From an uncultured Dialister sp. (GTDB lineage: Bacteria; Bacillota; Negativicutes; Veillonellales; Dialisteraceae), in assembly GCF_900765565.1 (NCBI RefSeq), contig NZ_CAAFRZ010000264.1, forward strand, positions 1 through 8,592: a DNA stretch of 8,592 nt, read 5' to 3'. The notes under the pieces are model-generated. The model had not been told where the DNA came from, made no database searches, and saw only the letters and a list, made by a program, of their open reading frames with translations. Shown piece after piece: positions 388 through 8,592 of the stretch. Positions within the stretch are counted from its first letter, which is position 1. Each line of letters starts with the position of its first letter. The position numbers were made by a program, and so were the translations under genes.

Positions 388-571
388 AGCGCCGCAGGCT
401 GGCCAGCTTTCCTAGCCGCTAGCAGCTGGCAGCTAGAAGCCCCCACCCGTTCGAACGGCGCCCGGCCATCCGTCATCTGGCCCGAAGGGCCTGTCCACCC
501 AGCCACCAGCTACCAGCCACTAGCTACTGATCTGCTCAATGCCCCCATCCGTTCGCACGCCGCCCAGCCAT
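388..571 (+). repeat. Heptad array - 59-bp linker - heptad array - half linker
   Basis: A GCGCCGCAGGCTG lead-in (390-402) and a TTTC motif precede four 7-bp units of the CTAGCAG family (412-439). A linker of exactly 59 bp follows (440-498), containing the palindrome GGCCCGAAGGGCC. Next come five units of the CTAGCCA family (499-533), then CTCAATG (535-541) and the first half of another linker (542-570), which stops at the terminator of the UPF0210 gene. The half linker is thus on the opposite strand to that gene, so the gene's own transcript would read its complement just after the terminator. Confidence 0.85.
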
Positions 572-611
572 AAAAAAACTGTATCGGACAATCATCCGAT
601 ACAGCTTTTTT
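572..611 (-). terminator. Intrinsic terminator of the UPF0210 operon, possibly bidirectional
   Basis: A perfect 10-bp stem (579-588 with 595-604, CTGTATCGGA and complement) encloses the 6-nt loop 589-594. On the minus strand the stem is followed by seven T residues (complement of 572-578), which is the expected end for the gene that stops at 622. On the plus strand six T residues (606-611) follow the stem, so it could also stop transcription from the left. Confidence 0.88.
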
Positions 612-621
612 CATTGTATCA

Positions 622-1980
622 TCAATTCGTCAGCGATCTCATCGGAGCCGGGATCTTGCCTCCCCGGTTAATGAAATCGTCCGCCCGGAACTGGTTGATC
701 TTCATTACCGGTGCATAGCCCATGAGGCCGCCGAACTGCACCATGTCTCCCGGTTTCTTACCCGGTACCGGGATGAGGCGGGTGGCGGTGGTCTTGTTAT
801 TGATCATGCCGATAGCCGCTTCGTCGGCGAGGATAGCGGAAATCGTGGAAGCCGGCGTGTCACCGGGGATGGCGATCATATCGAGGCCCACGGAGCACAC
901 GCAGGTCATGGCTTCCAGTTTCTCCAGGCAGAGACTCCCCTTTTCCACGGCCTGGATCATGCCCAGGTCTTCGCTCACCGGAATGAAGGCACCGGACAGG
1001 CCGCCGACACTGGAAGAGGCCATGAGGCCCCCCTTCTTCACCGCATCGTTCAGGAGGGCAAGGGCCGCCGTAGTTCCCGGGCCGCCGCAGCTTTCCAGAC
1101 CCATTTCTTCCAGCACCTGGGCCACGCTGTCGCCGACGGCAGAGGTAGGCGCCAGGGACAGGTCGATGATGCCGAAGGGCGCATGGAGCCGTTCCGTTGC
1201 CGCTTCCGCCACCATCTGGCCGAGACGGGTAATCATGAAGGCCGTATTCTTGATGGTCCTTGCCACCACGTTGAGAGGCGCCCCTTTCACATCTTCCAGG
1301 GCCCGCTTCACCACGCCGGGACCGGAGACACCCACATGGATGGCCGTATCTCCCTGGGTCACCCCATGGAAAGCGCCGGCCATGAAGGGGTTATCTTCCA
1401 CGGCGTTGCAGAATTCTACGAGTTTCGTGCATCCGTAGGCATCCTGGTCCTTCGTGAGTTCTGCCGTTTCCTTCACTACCTCACCCATCCGTTTCACCGC
1501 ATCCATATTGATGCCGGCCTTCGTGGAACCCACGGCCACGGAGCTGCAGATGCTCTTCGTGGAAGCCAGGGCTTCCGGGATAGAGTCAATGAGGATTTTA
1601 TCGGAAGACGACATGCCCCGGTCCACCAGGGCCGAGAAACCGCCGAGGATATCGACGCCCACTTCGTCCGCCGCCTTCTGCAGTGTTTTGGCGATATTCA
1701 CGTAGCTGGAAGTCTTAAGGCCCCCTGCCACCAGCGCAATGGGGGTGACGGAAATACGGCGGTTAATGATGGGCACCCCGTATTCCCGGGAAATATCATG
1801 GCTCACTTCGGTGAGATGTTCCGCCTTTGTGCAGATGGTGTCGTAAATCTTCCGGCACAGCGTCTTTTCATCGTCCGAAACGCAGCCCAGGAGGGAAATG
1901 CCCATGGTAATGGTACGGACGTCCAGTTTGTTCTGGTCAAACATCCGCTCCGTAGCAAGGATTTCTTCAATATCGAGCAT
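622..1980 (-). CDS. UPF0210/DUF711 family protein (PFL-like fold), function unknown
   Basis: A 452-residue protein recognisable as the UPF0210 (DUF711, 'PFL family protein') family by its full-length run of conserved glycine-rich segments: [10 protein letters not shown] (113-122), [14 protein letters not shown] (147-160), [17 protein letters not shown] (206-222), [19 protein letters not shown] (276-294), [19 protein letters not shown] (323-341), and a C-terminal [11 protein letters not shown] (372-382) with [10 protein letters not shown] (415-424). Known of the family: structural work places it near the pyruvate formate-lyase fold, but the glycyl-radical RVxGY signature is not visible here and no reaction is established. 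The start is ATG at 1980, preceded by a strong AAGGGGGA site. It lies 11 bp downstream of the ACT gene's stop, and the ribosome site starts within that stop (TGAAAGGGGGA), so the pair is probably translationally coupled. No truncation is seen. A role in a small-molecule-responsive system with the ACT partner is inference only. Confidence 0.95.
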
Positions 1981-1991
1981 GGCTCCCCCTT

Positions 1992-2264
1992 TCAGATGCG
2001 GTGCATGGCGTAGAAAATATCAGCCAGCTGGGCCCGCACATCCACACCCAGTTCTTTGCCGAGCTGTCCCAGGTCATCCTGCACATCCTTCAGGGAACCC
2101 TTCGCCTTTTCCATATCACAGATGAGGACCATGTCGAAAATATCCCCCAGGATGGTCTGGGAAATATCGAGAATATTGATATTTTCCTTAGCCAAAGCTG
2201 CTGCCACGCCGGCTACAATGCCCACCCGGTCAGCGCCGATAACGGTAACCACGATTTTTTTCAT
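1992..2264 (-). CDS. ACT domain-containing protein, UPF0237 family
   Basis: A 90-residue, single-domain protein. Residues 4-38 show the ACT opening ([19 protein letters not shown], then NINILDISQ), with the conserved turn G10-x-D12-x-x-G15 that in ACT domains contacts amino-acid ligands; the second half supplies the remaining strands and helix. It is a stand-alone ACT protein of the UPF0237 group, a family without a catalytic domain, taken to sense a small molecule or bind a partner; no ligand can be deduced. The start at 2264 has an AAGGAG site (2276-2271, minus) six bases upstream. It is first in an operon with the UPF0210 gene, an arrangement known from other Firmicutes such as streptococci, which supports a joint function. 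Confidence 0.94.
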
Positions 2265-2347
2265 AATTTTCTCCTTCCGATTCTACAGGATTCACACTGG
2301 CATCCCATTCAAGAGAAAGATTCATCTCCCTGCACAATGTTGTACTT

Positions 2348-2356
2348 ATTATAACA
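2348..2356 (-). promoter_or_regulatory. Extended -10 promoter of the ACT-UPF0210 operon
   Basis: On the minus strand 2356-2348 reads TGTTATAAT, a perfect TATAAT with the TG extension one base upstream. No good -35 is visible at 17 bp, consistent with an extended -10 promoter. It lies about 85 bp upstream of the ACT start codon and just inside the non-repetitive stretch 2265-2390; repeats begin at about 2391. Confidence 0.75.
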
Positions 2357-2394
2357 TACGAATGGATAGTATGAGCTCATAGGGATAGATAGAT

Positions 2395-2508
2395 CGAGAC
2401 CGAGACCGAGATCGAGGATGGCAATCCCAGGCCCTGCGGGCCGGGTGGCGGATGACTGAGTGGCGTGCGGACAGATGGGGCTTCCAGCTGCTAGCGGCTA
2501 GCTGTTAG
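2395..2508 (-). repeat. CGAGAC hexamer array - 58-bp linker - heptad array
   Basis: Four 6-bp units of the CGAGAC type (2395-2418) are followed by a few spacer bases and a linker of 58 bp (2423-2480) with the palindrome GGCCCTGCGGGCC, then four heptads (2481-2508) ending next to GAAAA. Relative to the copies at 412 or 5577 this block is inverted. The first heptad, CTTCCAG, is the complement of the CTRRAAG unit that closes every array of this family. Confidence 0.83.
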
Positions 2509-2545
2509 GAAAACCGATCGAAGCACCGCAGGCTGATCAACTTTT

Positions 2546-2707
2546 CTGGCAGCTAGCGGCTAGAAGCTAGAAGCCCCCATCCGTTCACACGCCCCTCAGC
2601 CACAGGACAACCGCGGCAAAGCCGCTAAAGACCTAGACCTGGATCTAGATCTAGACCTTCAGGGCCTCCAGCCCAGAGCCTCAACTCTCAACTCTCAATT
2701 CTCAAAT
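2546..2707 (+). repeat. Heptad array - 59-bp linker - CTAGAC hexamers - 23-bp linker - CTCAACT array
   Basis: Four CTAG-type heptads (2546-2573), a 59-bp linker (2574-2632), four hexamers of the CTAGAC type (2633-2656), a 23-bp short linker (2657-2679), then four CTCAACT-type heptads (2680-2707). The long linker starts like the others (CCCCCATCCGTTCACACG), but its second half carries a GCGGC/GCCGC palindrome in place of GGCCC/GGGCC without any change in length. The same order of hexamers, 23-bp linker and CTCAACT array recurs at 7114-7188. With 2423-2508 this block forms a long inverted repeat. Confidence 0.85.
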
Positions 2708-2747
2708 CTATCCCCCTAATCAGCTAGCCACTCCCTCAGCCATCATG

Positions 2748-2753
2748 TATAAT
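2748..2753 (+). promoter_or_regulatory. -10 element of the exonuclease III gene
   Basis: A perfect TATAAT lies 43 bp upstream of the ATG at 2796, in an AT-rich stretch that contrasts with the repeats on its left. No convincing -35 is visible; the bases 17 bp upstream belong to CTAGCCA-like sequence. Confidence 0.65.
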
Positions 2754-2795
2754 AATCATATAGATAAACATAAATTCAGAAAAAGGAGAACTCCC

Positions 2796-3557
2796 ATGAA
2801 AAAACTGAAATATATTTCCTGGAACGTGAACGGCCTCCGGGCCTGCCTGAAGAAGGGCTTCATGGATGCCTTCAACGCCCTGGACGCAGACTGCTTCTGC
2901 CTCCAGGAGACAAAACTCCAGCCCCACCAGATCGAGCTGGACCTGCCTGGCTACCACCAGTACTGGAACAGCGCCGTGAAGAAAGGCTACAGCGGTACCG
3001 CCATTTTCACAAAAGAAGAGCCCCTCTCCGTCACCTACGGTCTCGGTATCGAAGAGCATGACCAGGAAGGCCGCCTCATTACGGCGGACTTCGGCACCCA
3101 CTACCTCCTCTGCTGCTACACCCCCAACAGCCAGCGGGGTCTGGCAAGGCTCCCCTACCGCATGACCTGGGAAGAAGCCATGAAGGAATACATGACAAAA
3201 CTGGCAGAAAAAAAGCCGGTGATCCTCTGTGGCGACCTGAACGTGGCCCACGAGGACATCGACATTGCCAATCCTGCTTCCAACCATAAAAACGCCGGCT
3301 TCACCGACGAAGAACGGGGTAAAATGACGGACCTTCTCTCCGCCGGCTTCACCGACTCCTTCCGCCACCTCCACCCCCACGAAAAAGAGGCCTACTCCTG
3401 GTGGAGCTACTTCGCCAAATCCCGGGAACGGAACATTGGATGGAGAATCGACTACTTCCTGGTCTCCGACGCCTGGAAGGACCACATCAAAGGGGCCTCC
3501 ATCCACCCGGAAATCCTCGGCAGCGACCACTGCCCGGTGGAGCTGGATCTGGAGTAA
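2796..3557 (+). CDS. xth: Exodeoxyribonuclease III / class II AP endonuclease (ExoA/Xth type)
   Basis: A 253-residue enzyme of the exonuclease III family, which cleaves DNA 5' of abasic sites and removes 3' blocking groups in base excision repair. The full active-site set is present: N10 in SWNVNG (8-13), E38 in QETK (37-40), Y108 in YTPNS (108-112), D147 and N149 in GDLNVAH (146-152), D219 in GWRIDYFLVS (215-224), and D244-H245 in SDHCP (243-247). Length matches the Bacillus ExoA type. The start is ATG 2796, with AAAGGAG (2782-2788) seven bases upstream; an in-frame ATG at 2745 is rejected because it sits immediately before the -10 TATAAT. The gene stands alone. The TAA stop (3555-3557) lies in a stretch resembling the intergenic linker, and no intrinsic terminator follows. 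Confidence 0.97.
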   Translation: MKKLKYISWNVNGLRACLKKGFMDAFNALDADCFCLQETKLQPHQIELDLPGYHQYWNSAVKKGYSGTAIFTKEEPLSVTYGLGIEEHDQEGRLITADFGTHYLLCCYTPNSQRGLARLPYRMTWEEAMKEYMTKLAEKKPVILCGDLNVAHEDIDIANPASNHKNAGFTDEERGKMTDLLSAGFTDSFRHLHPHEKEAYSWWSYFAKSRERNIGWRIDYFLVSDAWKDHIKGASIHPEILGSDHCPVELDLE

Positions 3558-3582
3558 CTAAGCAGCGTACAAACAGATGAAG

Positions 3583-3690
3583 CCTTCAGCCTTGAGCCTT
3601 GAGCTGGATGGGCCCTGCGGGCCGGGTAACGGGTGTGTGAGATTGCGTGCAACCCACAGGAGCTTCCAGCTGCCAGCTGTTAGCTCCCAG
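3583..3690 (-). repeat. CCTTGAG heptads - 59-bp linker - heptad array
   Basis: Three units of the CTCAAGG family in complement (3583-3603) are followed by a linker of exactly 59 bp (3604-3662) and four CTAG-type heptads (3663-3690) that end at GGAAAGCC. The preceding bases, covering the stop codon of the exonuclease gene, resemble the distal half of the linker. It is inverted relative to the 412 copy. Confidence 0.83.
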
Positions 3691-3765
3691 GAAAGCCGGT
3701 CGGGCCCTTCGGGCCAGAACCATTCCGCGGCTTCGCCGCCATACCTTCTGCCTCTAACCGTTTAT

Positions 3766-3864
3766 CGTCATCTCGAGCGGTGGTAGCATGCAAGATGCCT
3801 ATTCAGTCAAGAATAGCTACAGCTTCGATGAGTCGAGAGATCTTCCTGATAAATGACTATGACG
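3766..3864. repeat. About 100-bp foldback element of unknown kind
   Basis: The ends pair: CGTCAT (3766-3771) with ATGACG (3859-3864). Inside, TCTCGA (3771-3776) can pair with TCGAGA (3833-3838), GTAGC (3783-3787) with GCTAC (3816-3820), and CTATTC (3799-3804) with GAATAG (3811-3816), some of these being alternatives because they overlap by one base. The sequence differs from the heptad-linker repeats around it. It could be a decayed palindromic repeat with an insertion in its loop, or a structured transcript; no known RNA family was recognised. Confidence 0.45.
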
Positions 3865-3878
3865 GGGTTTTCAAAAAG

Positions 3879-3906
3879 AATTGAGATTTGAGGTAAGAGA
3901 ATTGAG
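3879..3906 (-). repeat. Degenerate four-unit TTGAG heptad array
   Basis: Four 7-bp units, AATTGAG, ATTTGAG, GTAAGAG and AATTGAG, again 28 bp in total. It is the complement of the CTCAACT family but more diverged, and it is not followed by a standard linker. Confidence 0.6.
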
Positions 3907-4039
3907 GTCCCGCCTGCGGCGCTTTCACTAGCTACCCTACGTCGCCTACGGTTCCCTACGAACCCCGTTTGCTTTCCACTGCACCGCGGTGGGGTTTGCT
4001 GATGGGGACTGATGGGTCCGGCCCGCAGGGCCTGTTCAC

Positions 4040-4087
4040 CTAGCCACTAGATCTAGATACTAGCCACTGATTCGCCTCCGGCGAATC
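4040..4087 (+). repeat. CTAGCCA array with CTAGAT insertion and GATTCGCC hairpin
   Basis: CTAGCCA (4040-4046), a CTAGAT-like 13-bp insert (4047-4059), CTAGCCA (4060-4066) and a hairpin GATTCGCC (4069-4076) with GGCGAATC (4080-4087). It is preceded by a GGCCCGCAGGGCC palindrome (4019-4031), as other arrays are. The same array-hairpin junction is at 4-38. Confidence 0.65.
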
Positions 4088-4107
4088 ACCCCGCAGGGCC
4101 TGTCCAG

Positions 4108-4221
4108 CTCAAGGCTCAAGGCTGAAGGCTCAATGCCCCACACGCTCGCACGCCGCTTATCCACCCGTCACCCGGTCCGCTGGGCCTGATTACCAAGCTG
4201 CCAGACACTAGCCACCAGCTA
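4108..4221 (+). repeat. CTCAAGG array - 58-bp linker - array ending in a stop codon
   Basis: Four CTCAAGG-type heptads (4108-4135), a 58-bp linker (4136-4193; one C shorter at its start than the 59-bp form) with the palindrome GGTCCGCTGGGCC, then four heptads CAAGCTG, CCAGACA, CTAGCCA and CCAGCTA (4194-4221). The last three bases of the array, 4219-4221, read TAG on the minus strand and are the stop codon of the HAD gene. Confidence 0.8.
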
Positions 4222-5022
4222 CCTATCCAGCAGCTTCTCTATCTCCTTTGCCACCCCGTCCTCTTCATTGGACAGGCAGAGATGGGAAGCTGCTTTTTTT
4301 GCGACCTCGTCAGCATTGGCCACAGCGTAGGACAGGCCCGCCATCTTCAGGAGGGGCACATCGTTTTCCGTATTGCCGAAAGCCATGACTTCATCCGTGG
4401 AAATGCCCTCCTTCTCACAGAGGAAACGCACCGCCTCTGCCTTATTGACCCCCTTCTTATGGACATCCACGAAATCATCCCCCGGGAACACCACATCCAC
4501 ATGGGGGCCGAACTTCTCCTCCACCGCCCGGCGGATTTCATTTCTTTTCTCCGCCGACGGATTCGCAAAGACGATACGGGTCACCAGCTTCTTTGGATGG
4601 TAAAATTCCTCTCCCACAAAGATGGGCTTCTTGGACCGGTACTTCGCGTACTTCACCTCCGTGCCGTTGGGGGCGTCCATATAAATGAGGTCATCCATGA
4701 AAGAAGTGGCCTGCCAGCCCTGGCGCTTCGACTCCAGCAGGATGTCCGAAGCCAGTTTCGGATCCAGTCCCTGCTGCAGGAGGGGCTCCCCGGTTTCGCT
4801 CATCATGATCCAGGCCCCGGTGTAGCAGATGAGAGGCACATTTCCCAGATGGAGGGACTTCACCTTCCTCTGCGCCGAATCCCACATGCGCCCCGTGGCC
4901 ACCACCACCCGGTACCCCGCCTCAGAAGCGCGGCGGATGACCTGACGGGAATATTCGGAAATAGACATATCATCATGAAGAAGGGTGCCATCCAGGTCGA
5001 TGGCGATCATACGAATGGACAT
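4219..5022 (-). CDS. Cof-type HAD superfamily hydrolase (sugar-phosphate-type phosphatase)
   Basis: A 267-residue soluble HAD hydrolase with a large cap (about 85-185) between the two halves of the core, the type IIB (Cof) layout. Motif I is IAIDLDGTLL (6-15), with nucleophile D9 and acid/base D11; motif II is T43 in VVATGR (40-45); the motif III lysine is K194 in HKKGVNK (188-194); motif IV is AFGNTENDVPLL (214-225). In most Cof proteins motif IV reads GDxxND; here the first aspartate is N217, while N220 and D221 are kept. Family members dephosphorylate sugar phosphates, flavin or cofactor phosphates; the substrate cannot be told. The start is ATG 5022, with AAAGGA (5037-5032, minus) upstream; an upstream extension to 5103 would translate the intergenic repeat and is rejected. 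The stop lies within a heptad array. No clear promoter is seen; the AGTTGAG array sits directly upstream. Confidence 0.94.
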   Translation of the reverse strand: MSIRMIAIDLDGTLLHDDMSISEYSRQVIRRASEAGYRVVVATGRMWDSAQRKVKSLHLGNVPLICYTGAWIMMSETGEPLLQQGLDPKLASDILLESKRQGWQATSFMDDLIYMDAPNGTEVKYAKYRSKKPIFVGEEFYHPKKLVTRIVFANPSAEKRNEIRRAVEEKFGPHVDVVFPGDDFVDVHKKGVNKAEAVRFLCEKEGISTDEVMAFGNTENDVPLLKMAGLSYAVANADEVAKKAASHLCLSNEEDGVAKEIEKLLDR

Positions 5023-5047
5023 AGGGACGTTCCTTTCTGTAGAAAAG

Positions 5048-5161
5048 AGTTGAGAGTTGAGAATTGAGAGTTGAGGTTCCGCGGCTGCCGCCGCGAGTGC
5101 CATGTGGCTGGGTTGCGTGCATTCTTGTGGGGGCTTCTAGCTGCTAGCTTCTAGCTATTAG
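5048..5161 (-). repeat. CTCAACT array (complement) - 58-bp linker - heptad array
   Basis: Four units of AGTTGAG/AATTGAG (5048-5075), a 58-bp linker (5076-5133) and four CTAG-type heptads (5134-5161) followed by GAAAGC. The linker's outer half has the usual GTGGCTGGGTTGCGTGC form, while its inner half has a CGCGGC-GCCGCG palindrome (about 5080-5095) instead of GGCCC/GGGCC. Read on the minus strand, the CTCAACT array is 10 bp upstream of the ribosome site of the HAD gene. Confidence 0.84.
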
Positions 5162-5189
5162 GAAAGCTCGACAGCCTGCGGCGCCACCG

Positions 5190-5252
5190 ACGGCCGGGCT
5201 CTAAGGTGCTCGCTTAAATGTGCAGTAAATGCTCGCAAATGAGCCCGGCCAG
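5190..5252. repeat. Hairpin element with TGTGCAGTAAA core, copy A
   Basis: A perfect 10-bp stem, GGCCGGGCTC (5192-5201) with GAGCCCGGCC (5241-5250), encloses 39 bases. The loop contains the 11-mer TGTGCAGTAAA (5219-5229), flanked by CGCTT on the left and GCTCGC on the right. The same stem type, spacing and 11-mer occur at 8508-8566. It lies between a left-facing and a right-facing heptad array. Confidence 0.7.
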
Positions 5253-5323
5253 AGCTGCCCATCGGGCTGGGGTTAGCTGTAGGAAACTGATGGGAACTGG
5301 CCCAATGGGCCTGGTCAGCCTTC

Positions 5324-5400
5324 CTAACTGCTAATTGCTAGCAGCTAAAAGCCCCCATCCGTTCACACGCCGCTTAGCCACACAAGCGCCGCAGGCTGAC
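5324..5400 (+). repeat. Heptad array with truncated linker
   Basis: Four CTAG-type heptads (5324-5351; CTAACTG, CTAATTG, CTAGCAG, CTAAAAG) and the first half of the linker (5352-5381, starting CCCCCATCCGTTCACACG), then GCGCCGCAGGCTGAC (5386-5400) in place of the second half. It faces the inverted array at 5134-5161. Confidence 0.8.
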
Positions 5401-5570
5401 TTTAACCTCCCCCATCTATGGGGGAGGTGGCGCCGAAGGCGACGGAGGGGGCTCTCGCTAAAGTCGCTCCTACCGTTTCCTTCCAATCCCCCAGCCGCTT
5501 CACGGCCATCCATTGGCGCCCCTCCACCCGAGGGGAGGTTGGGGTGCATTTGCGGCGAAGCCGCTTTCCA
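5401..5570. repeat. GC-rich intergenic hairpins
   Basis: CCTCCCCC (5406-5413) pairs with GGGGGAGG (5420-5427) around a 6-nt loop, followed by a GCC-GAA-GGC hairpin near 5432-5440. A second CCCCT/AGGGG foldback is near 5519-5535, and GCGGC-GAA-GCCGC is near 5552-5564. These look like a separate class of ordinary intergenic palindrome. No T-tract marks them as terminators and there is no adjacent gene end. Confidence 0.55.
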
Positions 5571-5576
5571 GCTTTC

Positions 5577-5691
5577 CTAGCCGCTAACAGCTAGCAGCTA
5601 GAAGCCCCCATCCGTTCACACGCTCCTCAGCCACCCATCACCCGGCCTGCAGGGCCTGACCAGCTCAAGGCCCAAGGCTCAAAGCTCAAGG
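5577..5691 (+). repeat. Heptad array - 59-bp linker - CTCAAGG array
   Basis: The cleanest example of the composite unit: lead-in AGCTTTC, four CTAG-type heptads (5577-5604), a linker of exactly 59 bp (5605-5663) starting CCCCCATCCGTTCACACG and ending CCTGACCAG with the palindrome GGCCTGCAGGGCC, then four CTCAAGG-type heptads (5664-5691). Confidence 0.88.
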
Positions 5692-5749
5692 CCTCGCTCC
5701 TGATGACTCCAACTGTCCCCTGCTCAGCGCCTGCGGCGGACCAGCTCTC

Positions 5750-5970
5750 CTAGCCGCTAGGAGCTAGCAGCTAAAAGCCCCCATCCGTTCGTACGCCTCT
5801 CAGCCACCCATCCCCCGGCCCGCAGGGCCTTTCCAGCTCAAGACTGAAGGCTCAAGGCCCCACCCGTTCACACGCCCCTCAGCCACATACAGACCGGCCC
5901 GCAGGGCCTGTTCACCTAGCCACCAGCTACTGGCCACTAGCTACTAGCCACTGATCTGCTGGAAGCCCCC
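5750..5970 (+). repeat. Three heptad arrays joined by 59- and 58-bp linkers
   Basis: Four CTAG-type heptads (5750-5777), a 59-bp linker (5778-5836), three CTCAAGG-type heptads (5837-5857), a 58-bp linker (5858-5915), five CTAGCCA-type heptads (5916-5950), the junction CTGATCTG (5951-5958), CTGGAAG (5959-5965) and the start of a further linker (CCCCCACACG, 5966-5975). The chain ends at the promoter of the EamA gene. It is the longest such chain in the window and shows three heptad families in one reading register. Confidence 0.86.
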
Positions 5971-5977
5971 ACACGTA

Positions 5978-5986
5978 TGCTATAAT
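5978..5986 (+). promoter_or_regulatory. Extended -10 promoter of the EamA transporter gene
   Basis: TGCTATAAT is a perfect TATAAT with the TG extension, 33 bp upstream of the ATG. No TTGACA-like -35 is seen at 17 bp. It starts three bases after the last repeat segment, so the upstream promoter region is repeat DNA. Confidence 0.75.
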
Positions 5987-6019
5987 AACTATTATACAAC
6001 GTACACAAGGAGCATTCTC

Positions 6020-6901
6020 ATGAAATACCGTCTTTTACTTCTCACCGCCGCCCTGATCTGGGGCTTTGCCTTTGTGGCCCAGGTGGTGGGTATGGACACC
6101 GTAGGGCCCTTTACCTTCAACGGCTTCCGCTTTATCCTGGGATCCGCCGCCCTCCTGCCCTACCTCTATTTCCACCCCGCCGGAGAAAGCCCGGCGAAAA
6201 CGAAGATTCCCCTGTGGGCAGCGTTCCTCATGGTAGGGATTCCCCTGTTCCTGGGCGCCACCCTCCAGCAGGTGGGTCTCCAGTACACCACCGCCTCCAA
6301 GGCCAGCTTCCTCACGGCCAATTATATCCTCATGGTGCCTATTGCTGGCCTTTTCCTGGGAAATCCGCTCCACCGGAACCACCTCATCGGCGCCGTCCTT
6401 GCCATCATTGGGGTCTACTTCATGTCCATTACCGAAGACTTCACCATCAGTCTCGGCGACGGCCTCATGCTTCTCTGCGCCCTGTCCTTCACCGTGCAGA
6501 TTCACATGTTGGACTATCTCACCCAACGGTTTTCCCCGGTTCTCCTGTCCTGCGGCCAGTTCCTCGTCACCGGCGTGCTGAACCTGATTTTAGCCTATAC
6601 CTTTGAAACTCCCACCCTGTCTGGCCTGGAAGGCGCCCTGTGGCCCCTTCTTTACACCGGCATCCTTTCCACCAGCGTAGCCTACACCCTCCAGGCGGTG
6701 GGGCAGAAATACCTGCCTCCCACGGAGTCCTCCATGATTCTCAGTATGGAAATGGTCTTCGGCGGCCTGTCGGGTATCCTCTTCCTCGGTGAATCCTTCA
6801 CGTTCCGCCAGTACATCGGCGTCTTCGCCATGACCGCCGGCGTCTTCCTGTCCCAGCTCCCCAGCCCGGTCCTTCTGAAAGGCCGGCGGTCAGGTAACTG
6901 A
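6020..6901 (+). CDS. EamA/DMT superfamily transporter (ten transmembrane helices)
   Basis: A 293-residue inner-membrane protein with the two EamA repeats of the drug/metabolite transporter superfamily: about 4-136 and 146-281, each with five hydrophobic helices. The first repeat opens with ALIWGFAFVAQ (11-21) and carries TASKASFLTANYILMVP (91-107); the second has the matching segment around PPTESSMILSMEMVFGGL (233-250) and LGESF (256-260), followed by the last helix. Such proteins export or import small metabolites; the substrate cannot be told. The start at 6020 has AAGGAG (6007-6012) seven bases upstream and an extended -10 promoter. The gene stands alone. The last few codons (about 6880-6901, KGRRSGN) align with the intergenic linker repeat at 2436-2470, so the C-terminal tail and TGA stop may come from a repeat. 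No intrinsic terminator follows. Confidence 0.93.
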   Translation: MKYRLLLLTAALIWGFAFVAQVVGMDTVGPFTFNGFRFILGSAALLPYLYFHPAGESPAKTKIPLWAAFLMVGIPLFLGATLQQVGLQYTTASKASFLTANYILMVPIAGLFLGNPLHRNHLIGAVLAIIGVYFMSITEDFTISLGDGLMLLCALSFTVQIHMLDYLTQRFSPVLLSCGQFLVTGVLNLILAYTFETPTLSGLEGALWPLLYTGILSTSVAYTLQAVGQKYLPPTESSMILSMEMVFGGLSGILFLGESFTFRQYIGVFAMTAGVFLSQLPSPVLLKGRRSGN

Positions 6902-6951
6902 GCAGCGTGCGCACATGCGGGGGCTTCTAGCTTCTAGCGGCTAGCAGCTAG
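6880..6951 (-). repeat. Linker overlapping the EamA 3' end - heptad array
   Basis: The distal half of the linker (about 6895-6923, CTGAGCAGCGTGCGCACATG then GGGGG) precedes four CTAG-type heptads (6924-6951) ending at GGAAG. Matching against the 2436-2470 linker extends back into the coding end of the transporter gene. With 7027-7083 it forms a foldback with arms of about 75 bp. Confidence 0.75.
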
Positions 6952-7026
6952 GAAGACAGGGCAGCCTACGGCATAATTACGTTTGGGCAAACCTGATGGG
7001 AAAGCGCCGCAGGCTGGCCAGCTTTC

Positions 7027-7188
7027 CTAACAGCTAGCAGCTAACAGCTAGAAGCCCCCATCTGGTCGCACACTTCTTAGCCACCCGTCACCCGGCCCGG
7101 AGGGCCTGATTACCTAGACCTAGATCTAGACCTAGACCTCCAGGGCCTTCGGCCCAGAACCTCAACTCTCAACTCTCAACTCTCAATT
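7027..7188 (+). repeat. Heptads - 59-bp linker - CTAGAC hexamers - 23-bp linker - CTCAACT array
   Basis: Four CTAG-type heptads (7027-7054), a 59-bp linker (7055-7113) with the palindrome GGCCCGGAGGGCC, four CTAGAC-type hexamers (7114-7137), a 23-bp linker (7138-7160) with GGGCC-TTC-GGCCC, and four CTCAACT-type heptads (7161-7188) placed 13 bp upstream of the dehydrogenase ribosome site. Order and spacing are the same as at 2546-2707. Confidence 0.87.
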
Positions 7189-7201
7189 CTGTCTCATTCC
7201 G

Positions 7202-7216
7202 AAAGGAGCATCTCCT
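7202..7216 (+). promoter_or_regulatory. Ribosome binding site within a small hairpin
   Basis: AAAGGAG (7202-7208) lies eight bases before the ATG, and AGGAG (7204-7208) is followed after CAT by its exact complement CTCCT (7212-7216). A 5-bp, 3-nt-loop hairpin could therefore cover the ribosome site. Similar complementarity follows the AGGAG of the exonuclease gene (GGAG, AA, CTCC). Confidence 0.5.
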
Positions 7217-8161
7217 ATGAAAGAAATCGTCATTGCCCAGCCCCTCGGTATTTCCAAAGAAACCCTGGACCCCCTCTCCGCCTCCCTGGTGAAAGAGGGA
7301 TACCACATCACGCCTTACGATACCCTTCCCAAAGACCAGGAAGACCTGGGAAACCGCCTGGAAAAGGCGGATCTCGCGGTCATTGCGAACTACCCCCTGA
7401 AGAAAGAAGCCCTGGACAAGGCAAAGTCCCTGAAGTACCTCTGCGTAGCCTTCACAGGCGTGGACCACGTGGACATTGACTACTGCAGGGAAAAGGGCAT
7501 CGCCGTTTCCAACTGCGCCGGCTACTCCACGGAATCCGTAGCGGAACTGACAATCGGCATGGTCCTTGCCCTCTACCGCAAACTGGCAGACGGCGATAAA
7601 GCCGCCAGGAACGGCGGCACCAACGCCACCCTCCGGGGCATTGAAATCAAAGGCCGCACCTTCGGCATCATCGGCACCGGCGCCATCGGCTCCCGGGTGG
7701 CAGAACTGGCGAAAGCCTTCGGCGCCCATGTCATCGGCTACAACCGGTCCCACAAAAATAAGGACATAGAGTACAGGGACCTGGACACCCTTCTCAAGAC
7801 CGCAGACATCGTTTCCATCCACCTGCCCCTCACCCCGGAAACCAGGCATTTTCTGGACGCGAAAAAACTCTCCCTCATGAAGAAGAGCGCTATCCTCATC
7901 AACACCGCAAGAGGCGGCATCATCGACAACAAAGCGTTGGCTGACTGCCTCACCAAAGGCACCATCGCCGGCGCCGGCATCGACGTCTTCGACGGCGAAC
8001 CGCCCCTTCCGGAAGACTATCCCCTCCTGAAGGCACCAAACCTGGTCCTCACTCCCCACGTGGGCTTCGACACCGAAGAAGCCATGGAACGGAGAGCGGT
8101 CATCGTCTTCGACAACCTGGAAAGCTACCTGGCAGGAAACCAGAAAAATACGATCTGCTGA
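7217..8161 (+). CDS. D-isomer-specific 2-hydroxyacid dehydrogenase, NAD(P)-dependent
   Basis: A 314-residue cytosolic oxidoreductase that interconverts a 2-oxoacid and a D-2-hydroxyacid. The catalytic domain (about 1-100 and 285-314) contains FTGVDHVD (79-86); the inserted nucleotide domain has the Rossmann motif FGIIGTGAIGSRVAEL (149-164, with G153-x-G155-x-x-G158). The catalytic triad is in place: R232 in NTARGGIID (229-237), E261 in GIDVFDGEPPLP (254-265), H281 in LTPHVGF (278-284). After the second strand the loop reads YNRS (175-178), without the aspartate typical of NAD-dependent members, which favours NADP(H) (inference). The family includes phosphoglycerate, glyoxylate/hydroxypyruvate and D-lactate dehydrogenases; no C-terminal ACT domain is present, so this is not a long-form SerA. 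It does not resemble the Acidaminococcus HgdH as I know it. It is a single gene with its own terminator. Confidence 0.95.
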   Translation: MKEIVIAQPLGISKETLDPLSASLVKEGYHITPYDTLPKDQEDLGNRLEKADLAVIANYPLKKEALDKAKSLKYLCVAFTGVDHVDIDYCREKGIAVSNCAGYSTESVAELTIGMVLALYRKLADGDKAARNGGTNATLRGIEIKGRTFGIIGTGAIGSRVAELAKAFGAHVIGYNRSHKNKDIEYRDLDTLLKTADIVSIHLPLTPETRHFLDAKKLSLMKKSAILINTARGGIIDNKALADCLTKGTIAGAGIDVFDGEPPLPEDYPLLKAPNLVLTPHVGFDTEEAMERRAVIVFDNLESYLAGNQKNTIC

Positions 8162-8173
8162 TTGCATGACATA

Positions 8174-8211
8174 AGCCTGCAGAATGGTGAACCCATTCTG
8201 CAGGCTTTTTT
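8174..8211 (+). terminator. Strong intrinsic terminator of the dehydrogenase gene
   Basis: A perfect 14-bp stem (8174-8187 with 8193-8206, AGCCTGCAGAATGG and complement) with a 5-nt loop is followed by six T residues (8206-8211). It starts 13 bases after the stop codon at 8161. Confidence 0.95.
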
Positions 8212-8214
8212 CGT

Positions 8215-8366
8215 GTGGCTAAGCGGTGCGTGAACGTGTGGGGGCATTGAGCCTTCAGCCTTGAGCATTGAGCATTGAGCTGATCAGGCCCTGCGGGCCA
8301 GGTGATGGGTGGCTGGGGAGCATGCGAACGGATGGGGGCTTTTAGCTTCTAGCTGCTAGCGGCTAG
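8215..8366 (-). repeat. Half linker - CATTGAG array - 59-bp linker - heptad array
   Basis: A half linker (8216-8244, TGGCTAAGCGG to GGGGG) starts four bases after the terminator T-tract. It is followed by five heptads of the CTCAAGG/CTCAATG family in complement (8245-8279), a linker of exactly 59 bp (8280-8338) with the palindrome GGCCCTGCGGGCC, and four CTAG-type heptads (8339-8366) next to GAAAGC. Confidence 0.86.
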
Positions 8367-8503: not shown

Positions 8504-8567
8504 GTCGGCCGGGCCCTAAAAGGAAGGCGCTTTGGTGTGCAGTAAAAGCGCCAACTTGGGCCCGGCT
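8504..8567. repeat. Hairpin element with TGTGCAGTAAA core, copy B
   Basis: Outer stem GCCGGGCCC (8508-8516) with GGGCCCGGC (8558-8566), perfect over 9 bp; inner stem GGCGCTTT (8526-8533) with AAAGCGCC (8545-8552); apical loop GGTGTGCAGTA. The core TGTGCAGTAAA (8536-8546) and the flanking GTCGGCCGGGC match copy A at 5190-5250. The inner stem is better formed here than in copy A. Confidence 0.7.
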
Positions 8568-8592
8568 CAGCAGTCCTCTGCAGGACTGCTGC

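What the first reader, a model, noticed from the sequence alone, without database searches (positions are those of the whole stretch)
388..8366. Intergenic DNA follows an array-linker grammar: four short units, then a 58-59 bp linker
In almost every intergenic region, tandem arrays of short units alternate with a linker of nearly fixed length. Measured linkers are 440-498 (59), 2423-2480 (58), 2574-2632 (59), 3604-3662 (59), 4136-4193 (58), 5076-5133 (58), 5605-5663 (59), 5778-5836 (59), 5858-5915 (58), 7055-7113 (59) and 8280-8338 (59). A 28-bp array plus 59 bp gives a modular unit near 87 bp. About 41% of the window is noncoding and most of that obeys this grammar. Regular spacing across different sequence families suggests a defined element family rather than random decay. 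Possible roles are a non-autonomous mobile element, a nucleoid or replication-related protein-binding array, or a transcribed structured RNA; none is shown.
Basis: seen in the sequence. Interest (0 to 1): 0.85.

Follow-up and report, generated by a model that had tools for sequence, protein, structure and literature searches.

The report
Gene-flanking hairpin repeats filling Dialister spacers
Much of the DNA between genes in this Dialister-like bacterium consists of copies of one modular repeat, a four-unit array plus a 58-59-base linker carrying a small hairpin, which flanks genes in a consistent orientation and likely spread as a small mobile-type element whose RNA copies are predicted to fold into long hairpins.

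Summary
The regularity is real, but its cause differs from the one proposed. The 11 listed linkers are 58-59 bp and belong to one homologous family in two orientations (mean identity 68%), not to several. Each ends in a hairpin slot that can pair in 11 of 11 copies; two copies have a different stem. The CTAGCNG array is exactly four units in 11 of 11 arrays of that type. At all 10 gene ends that border a copy, the hairpin end points at the gene. Opposed copies form inverted pairs that fold into long hairpins (z -5.9 to -7.6). A relative (G409) carries one such pair (z -8.6). In five relatives with the same gene order the EamA-2HADH gap is 37-65 bp, against 315 bp here. Relatives carry other 7-, 8- and 9-mer arrays; G409 has a fixed-frame hairpin slot with exchanged stems (97 of 101 paired). 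Best reading: a MITE/BOX-like modular intergenic repeat, probably non-autonomous, that would be transcribed into hairpins. Mobility, ends, copy number and RNA effects are not shown; no genome is held for this window.

The parts
412..498 (+). CTAGCNG array (412-439) plus full linker (440-498)
542..573 (+). half-linker just outside the DUF711 terminator-like stretch, preceded by CTCAATG
   Evidence: profile E 1.8e-4
2389..2658 (.). inverted pair: hexamer array, linker 2423-2480 (-), CTAGCNG array, centre, CTAGCNG array, linker 2574-2632 (+), hexamer array; followed by a CTCAACT array 2680-2709
   Evidence: 2389-2720 folds with z -7.59
3581..3690 (-). CTCAAGG-type array (3581-3603), linker 3604-3662, CTAGCNG array (3663-3690), downstream of the exonuclease gene
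4107..4193 (+). CTCAAGG-type array plus linker 4136-4193, facing the 3' end of the HAD gene
5041..5400 (.). inverted pair: CTCAACT array (5046-5075), linker 5076-5133 (-), CTAGCNG array, centre, CTAGCNG array, half-linker 5353-5395 (+)
   Evidence: folds with z -5.92 (minus strand)
5577..5952 (+). three successive units: CTAGCNG array and linker 5605-5663; CTCAAGG-type array; CTAGCNG array and linker 5778-5836; CTCAAGG-type array and linker 5858-5915; CTAGCCACTAGCTA array
6885..7190 (.). inverted pair in the EamA-2HADH gap: half-linker 6881-6922 (-), CTAGCNG array, centre, CTAGCNG array, linker 7055-7113 (+), hexamer array, hairpin, CTCAACT array
   Evidence: 6885-7200 folds with z -7.02; gap 315 bp against 37-65 bp in five relatives
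8211..8366 (-). half-linker 8211-8243 (weak, E 0.39), CTCAAGG-type array (8244-8280), linker 8280-8338, CTAGCNG array (8339-8366), downstream of the 2HADH terminator-like stem

Best explanation
The pattern consists of copies of one modular, hairpin-forming repeat family that flanks genes of a Dialister-like bacterium, and it likely spread as a non-autonomous, MITE- or BOX-like element. Shown here: the usual module is a 28-bp four-unit array, a 58-59 bp linker ending in a 5-bp hairpin slot, and then a second array of changeable unit type; copies next to genes point the hairpin end at the gene, and opposed copies form inverted pairs. Inferred: where such a pair lies inside a transcription unit (between EamA and 2HADH, or upstream of HAD) its RNA would fold into a long stem, which would be cut by a double-strand RNase such as RNase III or would shield mRNA ends, and so would uncouple neighbouring genes. 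Inferred: copies persist in spacers, next to stop codons and terminators, because they do little harm there. The copying enzyme is unknown.
For: One linker family in two orientations, with half-copies. Hairpin slot paired in 92.7% of cells, three of five pairs with changes on both sides, covariation score reached by 0 of 500 shuffles. Ten of 10 bordered gene ends face the hairpin end; three more in G409 agree. Three window pairs and one G409 pair fold far better than shuffles. EamA-2HADH gap 315 bp against 37-65 bp in five of five relatives with that order; HAD-EamA 994 against 87-131 bp in four of four measured. G409 pair keeps a 28-bp array and a 57-bp linker with another sequence, and its arms match each other better (0.73) than other copies (mean 0.40).
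Against: No target-site duplication, defined end or transposase was found; Y1 transposases are in 2 of 10 relatives and not in G409. The ACT-exonuclease spacer (531 bp) is not longer than in G404 (644 bp). Arms of window pairs are no more alike than arms of different copies. Only one full pair in G409. G409's own arrays show no polarity (15 of 27 placed arrays point to the nearer gene). No RNA data.
Confidence: 0.5

Rival explanations
1. Local mutation without mobility: short arrays arise by replication slippage, hairpins are perfected by template switching, and the shared linker spread by recombination between spacers.
For: Arrays of several unit types and lengths in relatives; array types exchanged beside the same linker. 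Heptamer repeats are the most abundant long simple repeats in most genomes and slippage was proposed (PMC4679880, Introduction read).
Against: The CTAGCNG array is 28 bp in 11 of 11 window and 3 of 3 G409 arrays, not variable. Slippage does not explain a shared 58-59 bp linker in two orientations or the gene-facing polarity in the window.
Confidence: 0.22
2. The repeats are kept because they work as boundary RNAs (terminators, mRNA end protection or translation control), and number and polarity reflect selection rather than spread.
For: Polarity at 10 of 10 bordered gene ends; pairing kept while stems change; units directly next to stop codons, terminator-like stems and ribosome sites.
Against: No Rfam match. 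Orthologous gaps in relatives work without them. No RNA data. A T-run follows the 8173-8207 stem, not the linker hairpins.
Confidence: 0.15
3. REP/BIME-type mosaic moved by a RAYT (Y1) transposase.
For: Mosaic of short hairpins in spacers; G408 has two Y1 matches.
Against: G409, with the densest hairpin modules among relatives examined, has no Y1 match; 8 of 10 genomes have none. The window's own genome could not be searched.
Confidence: 0.08
4. Protein-binding array for nucleoid or replication functions.
For: Regular spacing and repeated short units.
Against: Unit types change beside the same linker; pairing, not only sequence, is conserved in the hairpin slot; polarity follows genes on both strands.
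Confidence: 0.05

Closest known systems
Pneumococcal BOX elements (PMC3049150; passages read)
   Same: Composite modular repeat with fixed end modules and a tandem array, 67-637 bp, in spacers, predicted to fold as RNA.
   Different: The array unit here is 6-7 bp and of several types; a hairpin slot with exchanged stems; other phylum branch. Sequence relation to BOX was not tested.
Correia/NEMIS and other bacterial MITEs (PMC2229807, PMC10969869; passages read)
   Same: Small non-coding inverted repeats in spacers whose transcripts form long stems; RNase III cuts Correia transcripts according to these papers.
   Different: GC-rich instead of AT-rich; ends not defined; arms contain a four-unit array; no target-site duplication or transposase found.
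REP/BIME mosaics (recalled; search listing only)
   Same: Mosaics of short palindromic modules in spacers.
   Different: Short-unit arrays between the hairpins; Y1 transposases not consistently present.
Heptamer long simple sequence repeats, STRR and TAACTGA repeats (PMC4679880; abstract and Introduction read; cyanobacterial STRR from recall and a search listing)
   Same: Seven-base tandem units in spacers; G408 even has the TAACTGA heptamer as AACTGAT arrays.
   Different: Here the main array has a fixed number of units and is part of a larger element with linker and hairpin.

Membership tests
MITE | Inverted arms and a strongly paired transcript | tested here: met
   Three window pairs and one G409 pair; z -5.9 to -8.6
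MITE | Total length under about 500 bp | tested here: inconclusive
   Pairs span about 250-360 bp, but element ends are not defined
MITE | Target-site duplication at a filled site against an empty site | tested here: inconclusive
   Shorter orthologous gaps found in relatives, but too diverged to align the borders
MITE | A+T-rich | tested here: not met
   Window spacers are 59% G+C
MITE | Transposase in the same genome with matching ends | not testable with these tools
   No genome held for the window
BOX element | Modular composite with a tandem array between fixed modules | tested here: met
   Array-linker-array chains, 11 linkers
BOX element | Sequence homology to boxA, boxB or boxC | not tested
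   No BOX sequence was fetched
REP/BIME | RAYT (Y1) transposase in the genome | tested here: inconclusive
   2 of 10 relatives, not G409; own genome not held
STRR / long simple sequence repeat | Tandem 7-bp units in spacers | tested here: met
STRR / long simple sequence repeat | Variable number of units | tested here: not met
   CTAGCNG array is 28 bp in 11 of 11 window and 3 of 3 G409 arrays; the CTCAAGG-type arrays do vary, 3-5 units
Rfam RNA family | Match at the gathering score | tested here: not met
   0 matches in the window and in L072 7700-16000

The most novel reading that the evidence does not exclude
Some Dialister lineages write their spacers in a modular structural code: fixed frames of species-specific 6-9-mer arrays and conserved linkers holding hairpin slots whose stems are exchanged as whole, already paired cassettes, oriented to the adjacent gene. 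An unknown enzyme that reads folded single-stranded DNA or RNA would copy and swap these hairpins, giving genes matching pairs of boundary tags.
Probability: 0.1. Interest if true: 0.85.

Novelty: new variant of a known kind. Interest (0 to 1): 0.52.

Why it matters
Spacers of this kind seem undescribed for Dialister: two full-text searches pairing Dialister with repeats listed two papers each, off-topic by title and start of abstract. If right, a lineage has raised its noncoding share to 41% in this window, against about 6-10% in stretches of G404 and G410-G412 (G402 and G425 also have 15-17% without such arrays), by filling gene borders and splitting an operon-like gap with long hairpins. 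That gives a natural test of how much intercistronic hairpin load an mRNA tolerates, and of how hairpin stems change without losing pairing. Such repeats may also break short-read assemblies.

Tried and rejected
Exact linker pattern in genome contigs: 7 single hits in unrelated organisms, read as chance. The same pattern and an array-linker junction in viral contigs: none. Window against plasmids and phages, near mode: none. Rfam at gathering score: none. Searching an ORF that runs across a unit among proteins, to count copies through spurious gene calls: one candidate, none scored. Y1 transposase: not consistent. The idea that arms of one window pair are homogenised: not supported for four window pairs tested, only for the single G409 pair. 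Gene-facing polarity as a genus rule: not claimed. In G408, 45 of 64 placed arrays of five families point to the nearer gene, but the CTAACNG family alone is 12 of 21, and I chose unit directions partly after seeing the sequences; in G409, 15 of 27. G407's two CTAGCNG pattern hits are close to its reversed-pattern control of one. Stop codons in all frames as a function of heptamers: considered, not tested.

Dropped before counts: G409 from the EamA-2HADH gap count, because its gene order differs there; G404 from the HAD-EamA count, because its EamA match lacks the start; the HAD-exonuclease spacer, because G408 has other genes between. The two gene ends of the 11-bp ACT-DUF711 gap border no copy. 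In one search, arrays inside called ORFs or far from genes were not placed. G408 stretches were mostly chosen by array hits, so array density there is biased upward. The 43% figure rests on hand-marked modules. The profile was built from the 11 linkers it then finds. ORF calls are a simple longest-ORF rule. The G406 stretch is all N.
Full report
WHAT THE WINDOW IS. Six genes are supported by Pfam: DUF711 (622-1980, -), ACT (1992-2264, -), an exonuclease/endonuclease/phosphatase family protein (2796-3557, +), HAD hydrolase (4219-5025, -), EamA transporter (6020-6901, +) and a D-2-hydroxyacid dehydrogenase, 2HADH (7217-8161, +). The EamA protein is 95% identical to one that a source names as Dialister sp. 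(best 120 of 6,559 hits listed). No genome is held for the window. Through genomes reached by loci I searched 61 genomes of one order; 6 have an EamA match at E <= 1e-80, the closest being G409 (84%) and G408 (79%).

THE OBSERVATION. The 11 linkers are at the stated places and are 58 bp (four) or 59 bp (seven). Read on the proper strand they align as one family, with consensus CCCCCATCCGTTCGCACGCCnCTCAGCCACCCGTCACCCGGCCCGCAGGGCCTG: mean identity 0.68, range 0.48-0.90, with 1,033 substitutions and 48 gap columns summed over 55 pairs. Seven lie on the + strand and four on the - strand. A profile built from them finds four half-copies in the window, two clear (E 6.3e-5, 1.8e-4) and two weak (E 0.088, 0.39), and nothing better than E 0.11 in the 80 fetched relative loci searched (L072-L151). 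Nine of the 11 linkers follow a (CTAGCNG)x4 array and two follow a CTCAAGG-type array; the CTAGCNG array is 28 bp in 11 of 11 cases, counting two before half-linkers. The array on the other side changes type: CTCAAGG, CTCAACT, a hexamer CTAGAC/CTAGAT type, or CTAGCCACTAGCTA.

THE HAIRPIN SLOT. The linker's far end holds a 5-bp hairpin. In the 11 copies 92.7% of cells pair and three of five pairs show changes on both sides (9 of 500 shuffles reach that); the covariation score is reached by none of 500 shuffles. Slid versions score lower, with +1 close on that measure (0.295 against 0.324), since one copy has a four-base loop and is shifted by one. A free stem search gives at least 5 pairs in 11 of 11, one of them in another register; in two copies (2574, 5076) the stem is of GCGGC type instead of GGCCC.

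POLARITY. Taking the nearest linker or half-linker, 10 of the window's 12 gene ends border a copy, and in all 10 the hairpin end, or in half-copies the end that would carry it, points at the gene. Three of the 10 rest on half-copies (DUF711, EamA and 2HADH 3' ends); for DUF711 and 2HADH the next full copy agrees. Under random, independent orientation this would be about 1 in 1,000 (my calculation). Within a spacer, minus-strand copies lie left and plus-strand copies right, so the CTAGCNG arrays face each other and the copies form inverted pairs. Three such pairs fold far better than dinucleotide shuffles: 6885-7200 z -7.0, 2389-2720 z -7.6, 5041-5400 (minus strand) z -5.9, none of 100 shuffles as good in each case.

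COMPARISON WITH RELATIVES. G408, G404, G410, G411 and G412 keep the order of the window's genes or parts of it. The EamA-2HADH gap is 53, 65, 45, 65 and 37 bp in those five and 315 bp in the window; HAD-EamA is 87, 131, 131 and 127 bp in G408, G410, G411 and G412 and 994 bp here (ends of protein matches, so approximate). A TATAAT-like pair pointing both ways sits next to EamA in the window as it does in the short G408 gap. By inference HAD has been separated from its promoter by most of the repeat DNA and would carry a long hairpin-rich 5' UTR; no promoter-like site was found there by the consensus scan, which found fewer such sites (1) than shuffles give (2.3). The ACT-exonuclease spacer (531 bp) is longer than in G408 (329 bp) but not than in G404 (644 bp).

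A COPY IN ANOTHER SPECIES. G409 has one complete inverted pair between two co-directed genes (C2:97,840-98,091, that is L072 7841-8092) and one partial copy (near C2:101,975). Its plus arm shows a 28-bp array, a 57-bp linker, the hairpin GCGGCGAAGCCGC, a CTCAA array and then a ribosome site. The pair folds with z -8.6, none of 200 shuffles as good. Its linker differs strongly from the window's, yet its two arms score 0.73 with each other against a mean of 0.40 with other copies. Its three bordered gene ends obey the same polarity.

THE WIDER PATTERN. Gaps between neighbouring arrays are broad in G408 and few in G409, so the 58-59 bp rule is not a rule of the genus. What is shared is a habit. 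G408 has 84 period-7 arrays in 319 kb (stretches mostly chosen by array hits), 75 of them outside called ORFs, of many unit types. G409 contig C2 (759 kb) has 12 period-7, 12 period-8 and 24 period-9 arrays, some inside called ORFs. G409 C2 also has 325 AACCYTB-hairpin modules against 5 in a Markov control. Selecting 101 slots by their flanks only, 97 pair over five outer bases; they comprise 33 distinct inserts, 29 of which pair, and 16 stem combinations, while halves of different stem types pair in 927 of 17,653 trials. Small GC-rich hairpins per kb of spacer are 6.7 in the window, 4.2 in G409, 3.0 in G407 and 1.4 in G408, and 0-0.8 in G402, G404 and G410-G412; outside this group G300 has 1.6 and G403, G405, G425 and G432 have 0-0.3 (small samples). 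Among the other genomes sampled, only G407 showed period 6-9 arrays.

HOW IT PROBABLY WORKS. Linker homology in both orientations, half-copies, short orthologous gaps and an equivalent pair elsewhere are best explained by dispersal of a small non-coding element. The enzyme is unknown; Y1 transposases occur in 2 of 10 relatives and not in G409. Pairs inside transcription units would give long RNA stems. By analogy with Correia elements, whose transcripts are reported to be cut by RNase III (PMC2229807, PMC10969869; passages read), these would be processed and would uncouple neighbours. That step is inference.

WHAT IS NOT SHOWN. No target-site duplication, no defined ends, no genome-wide count in this species, no RNA data. 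It fails one usual MITE property (A+T richness) and one STRR property (variable number of units in the main array), so I file it with neither; it works like a MITE or a BOX element.

Noticed in passing
L092-L129 (G409 contig C2): A different dispersed module, AACCCTC-hairpin-GTCAAACTTAAG, with fixed frame (mostly 13 or 15 nt inserts) and exchanged, nearly always paired stems, often beside 9-mer AACCYTYTG arrays.
   Followed up: partly
L074-L091 (G408): Several heptamer array families in one genome (CTAACNG, AACTGAT, CACGAAC, CCCGCAC, GAACGAA); AACTGAT is a rotation of the TAACTGA heptamer reported in Beggiatoaceae. L080 15500-16050 has about four tandem copies of a roughly 160-bp unit holding the CACGAAC array.
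   Followed up: partly
window 3765-3865; L072 13375-13540: Another repeat shared with G409, beginning GTCATCTCGAGCGGTGG and containing GCTACAGCTTCGATGAGTCGAG.
   Followed up: no
window 5195-5250 and 8505-8570; L072 11835-11880: A further palindromic family built around GGGCC(C)/GGCC ends and a core with TGTGCAGTAAA or CAAAGCGCCTT.
   Followed up: no
L073 8250-10980 (G409): In G409 EamA and HAD lie head to tail with a 20-bp gap and 2HADH is divergent, unlike the window and five other relatives: a local rearrangement.
   Followed up: partly
window 5988-6013: TATAAT-like boxes in both directions beside EamA; the one facing HAD is now about 960 bp from the HAD start.
   Followed up: partly
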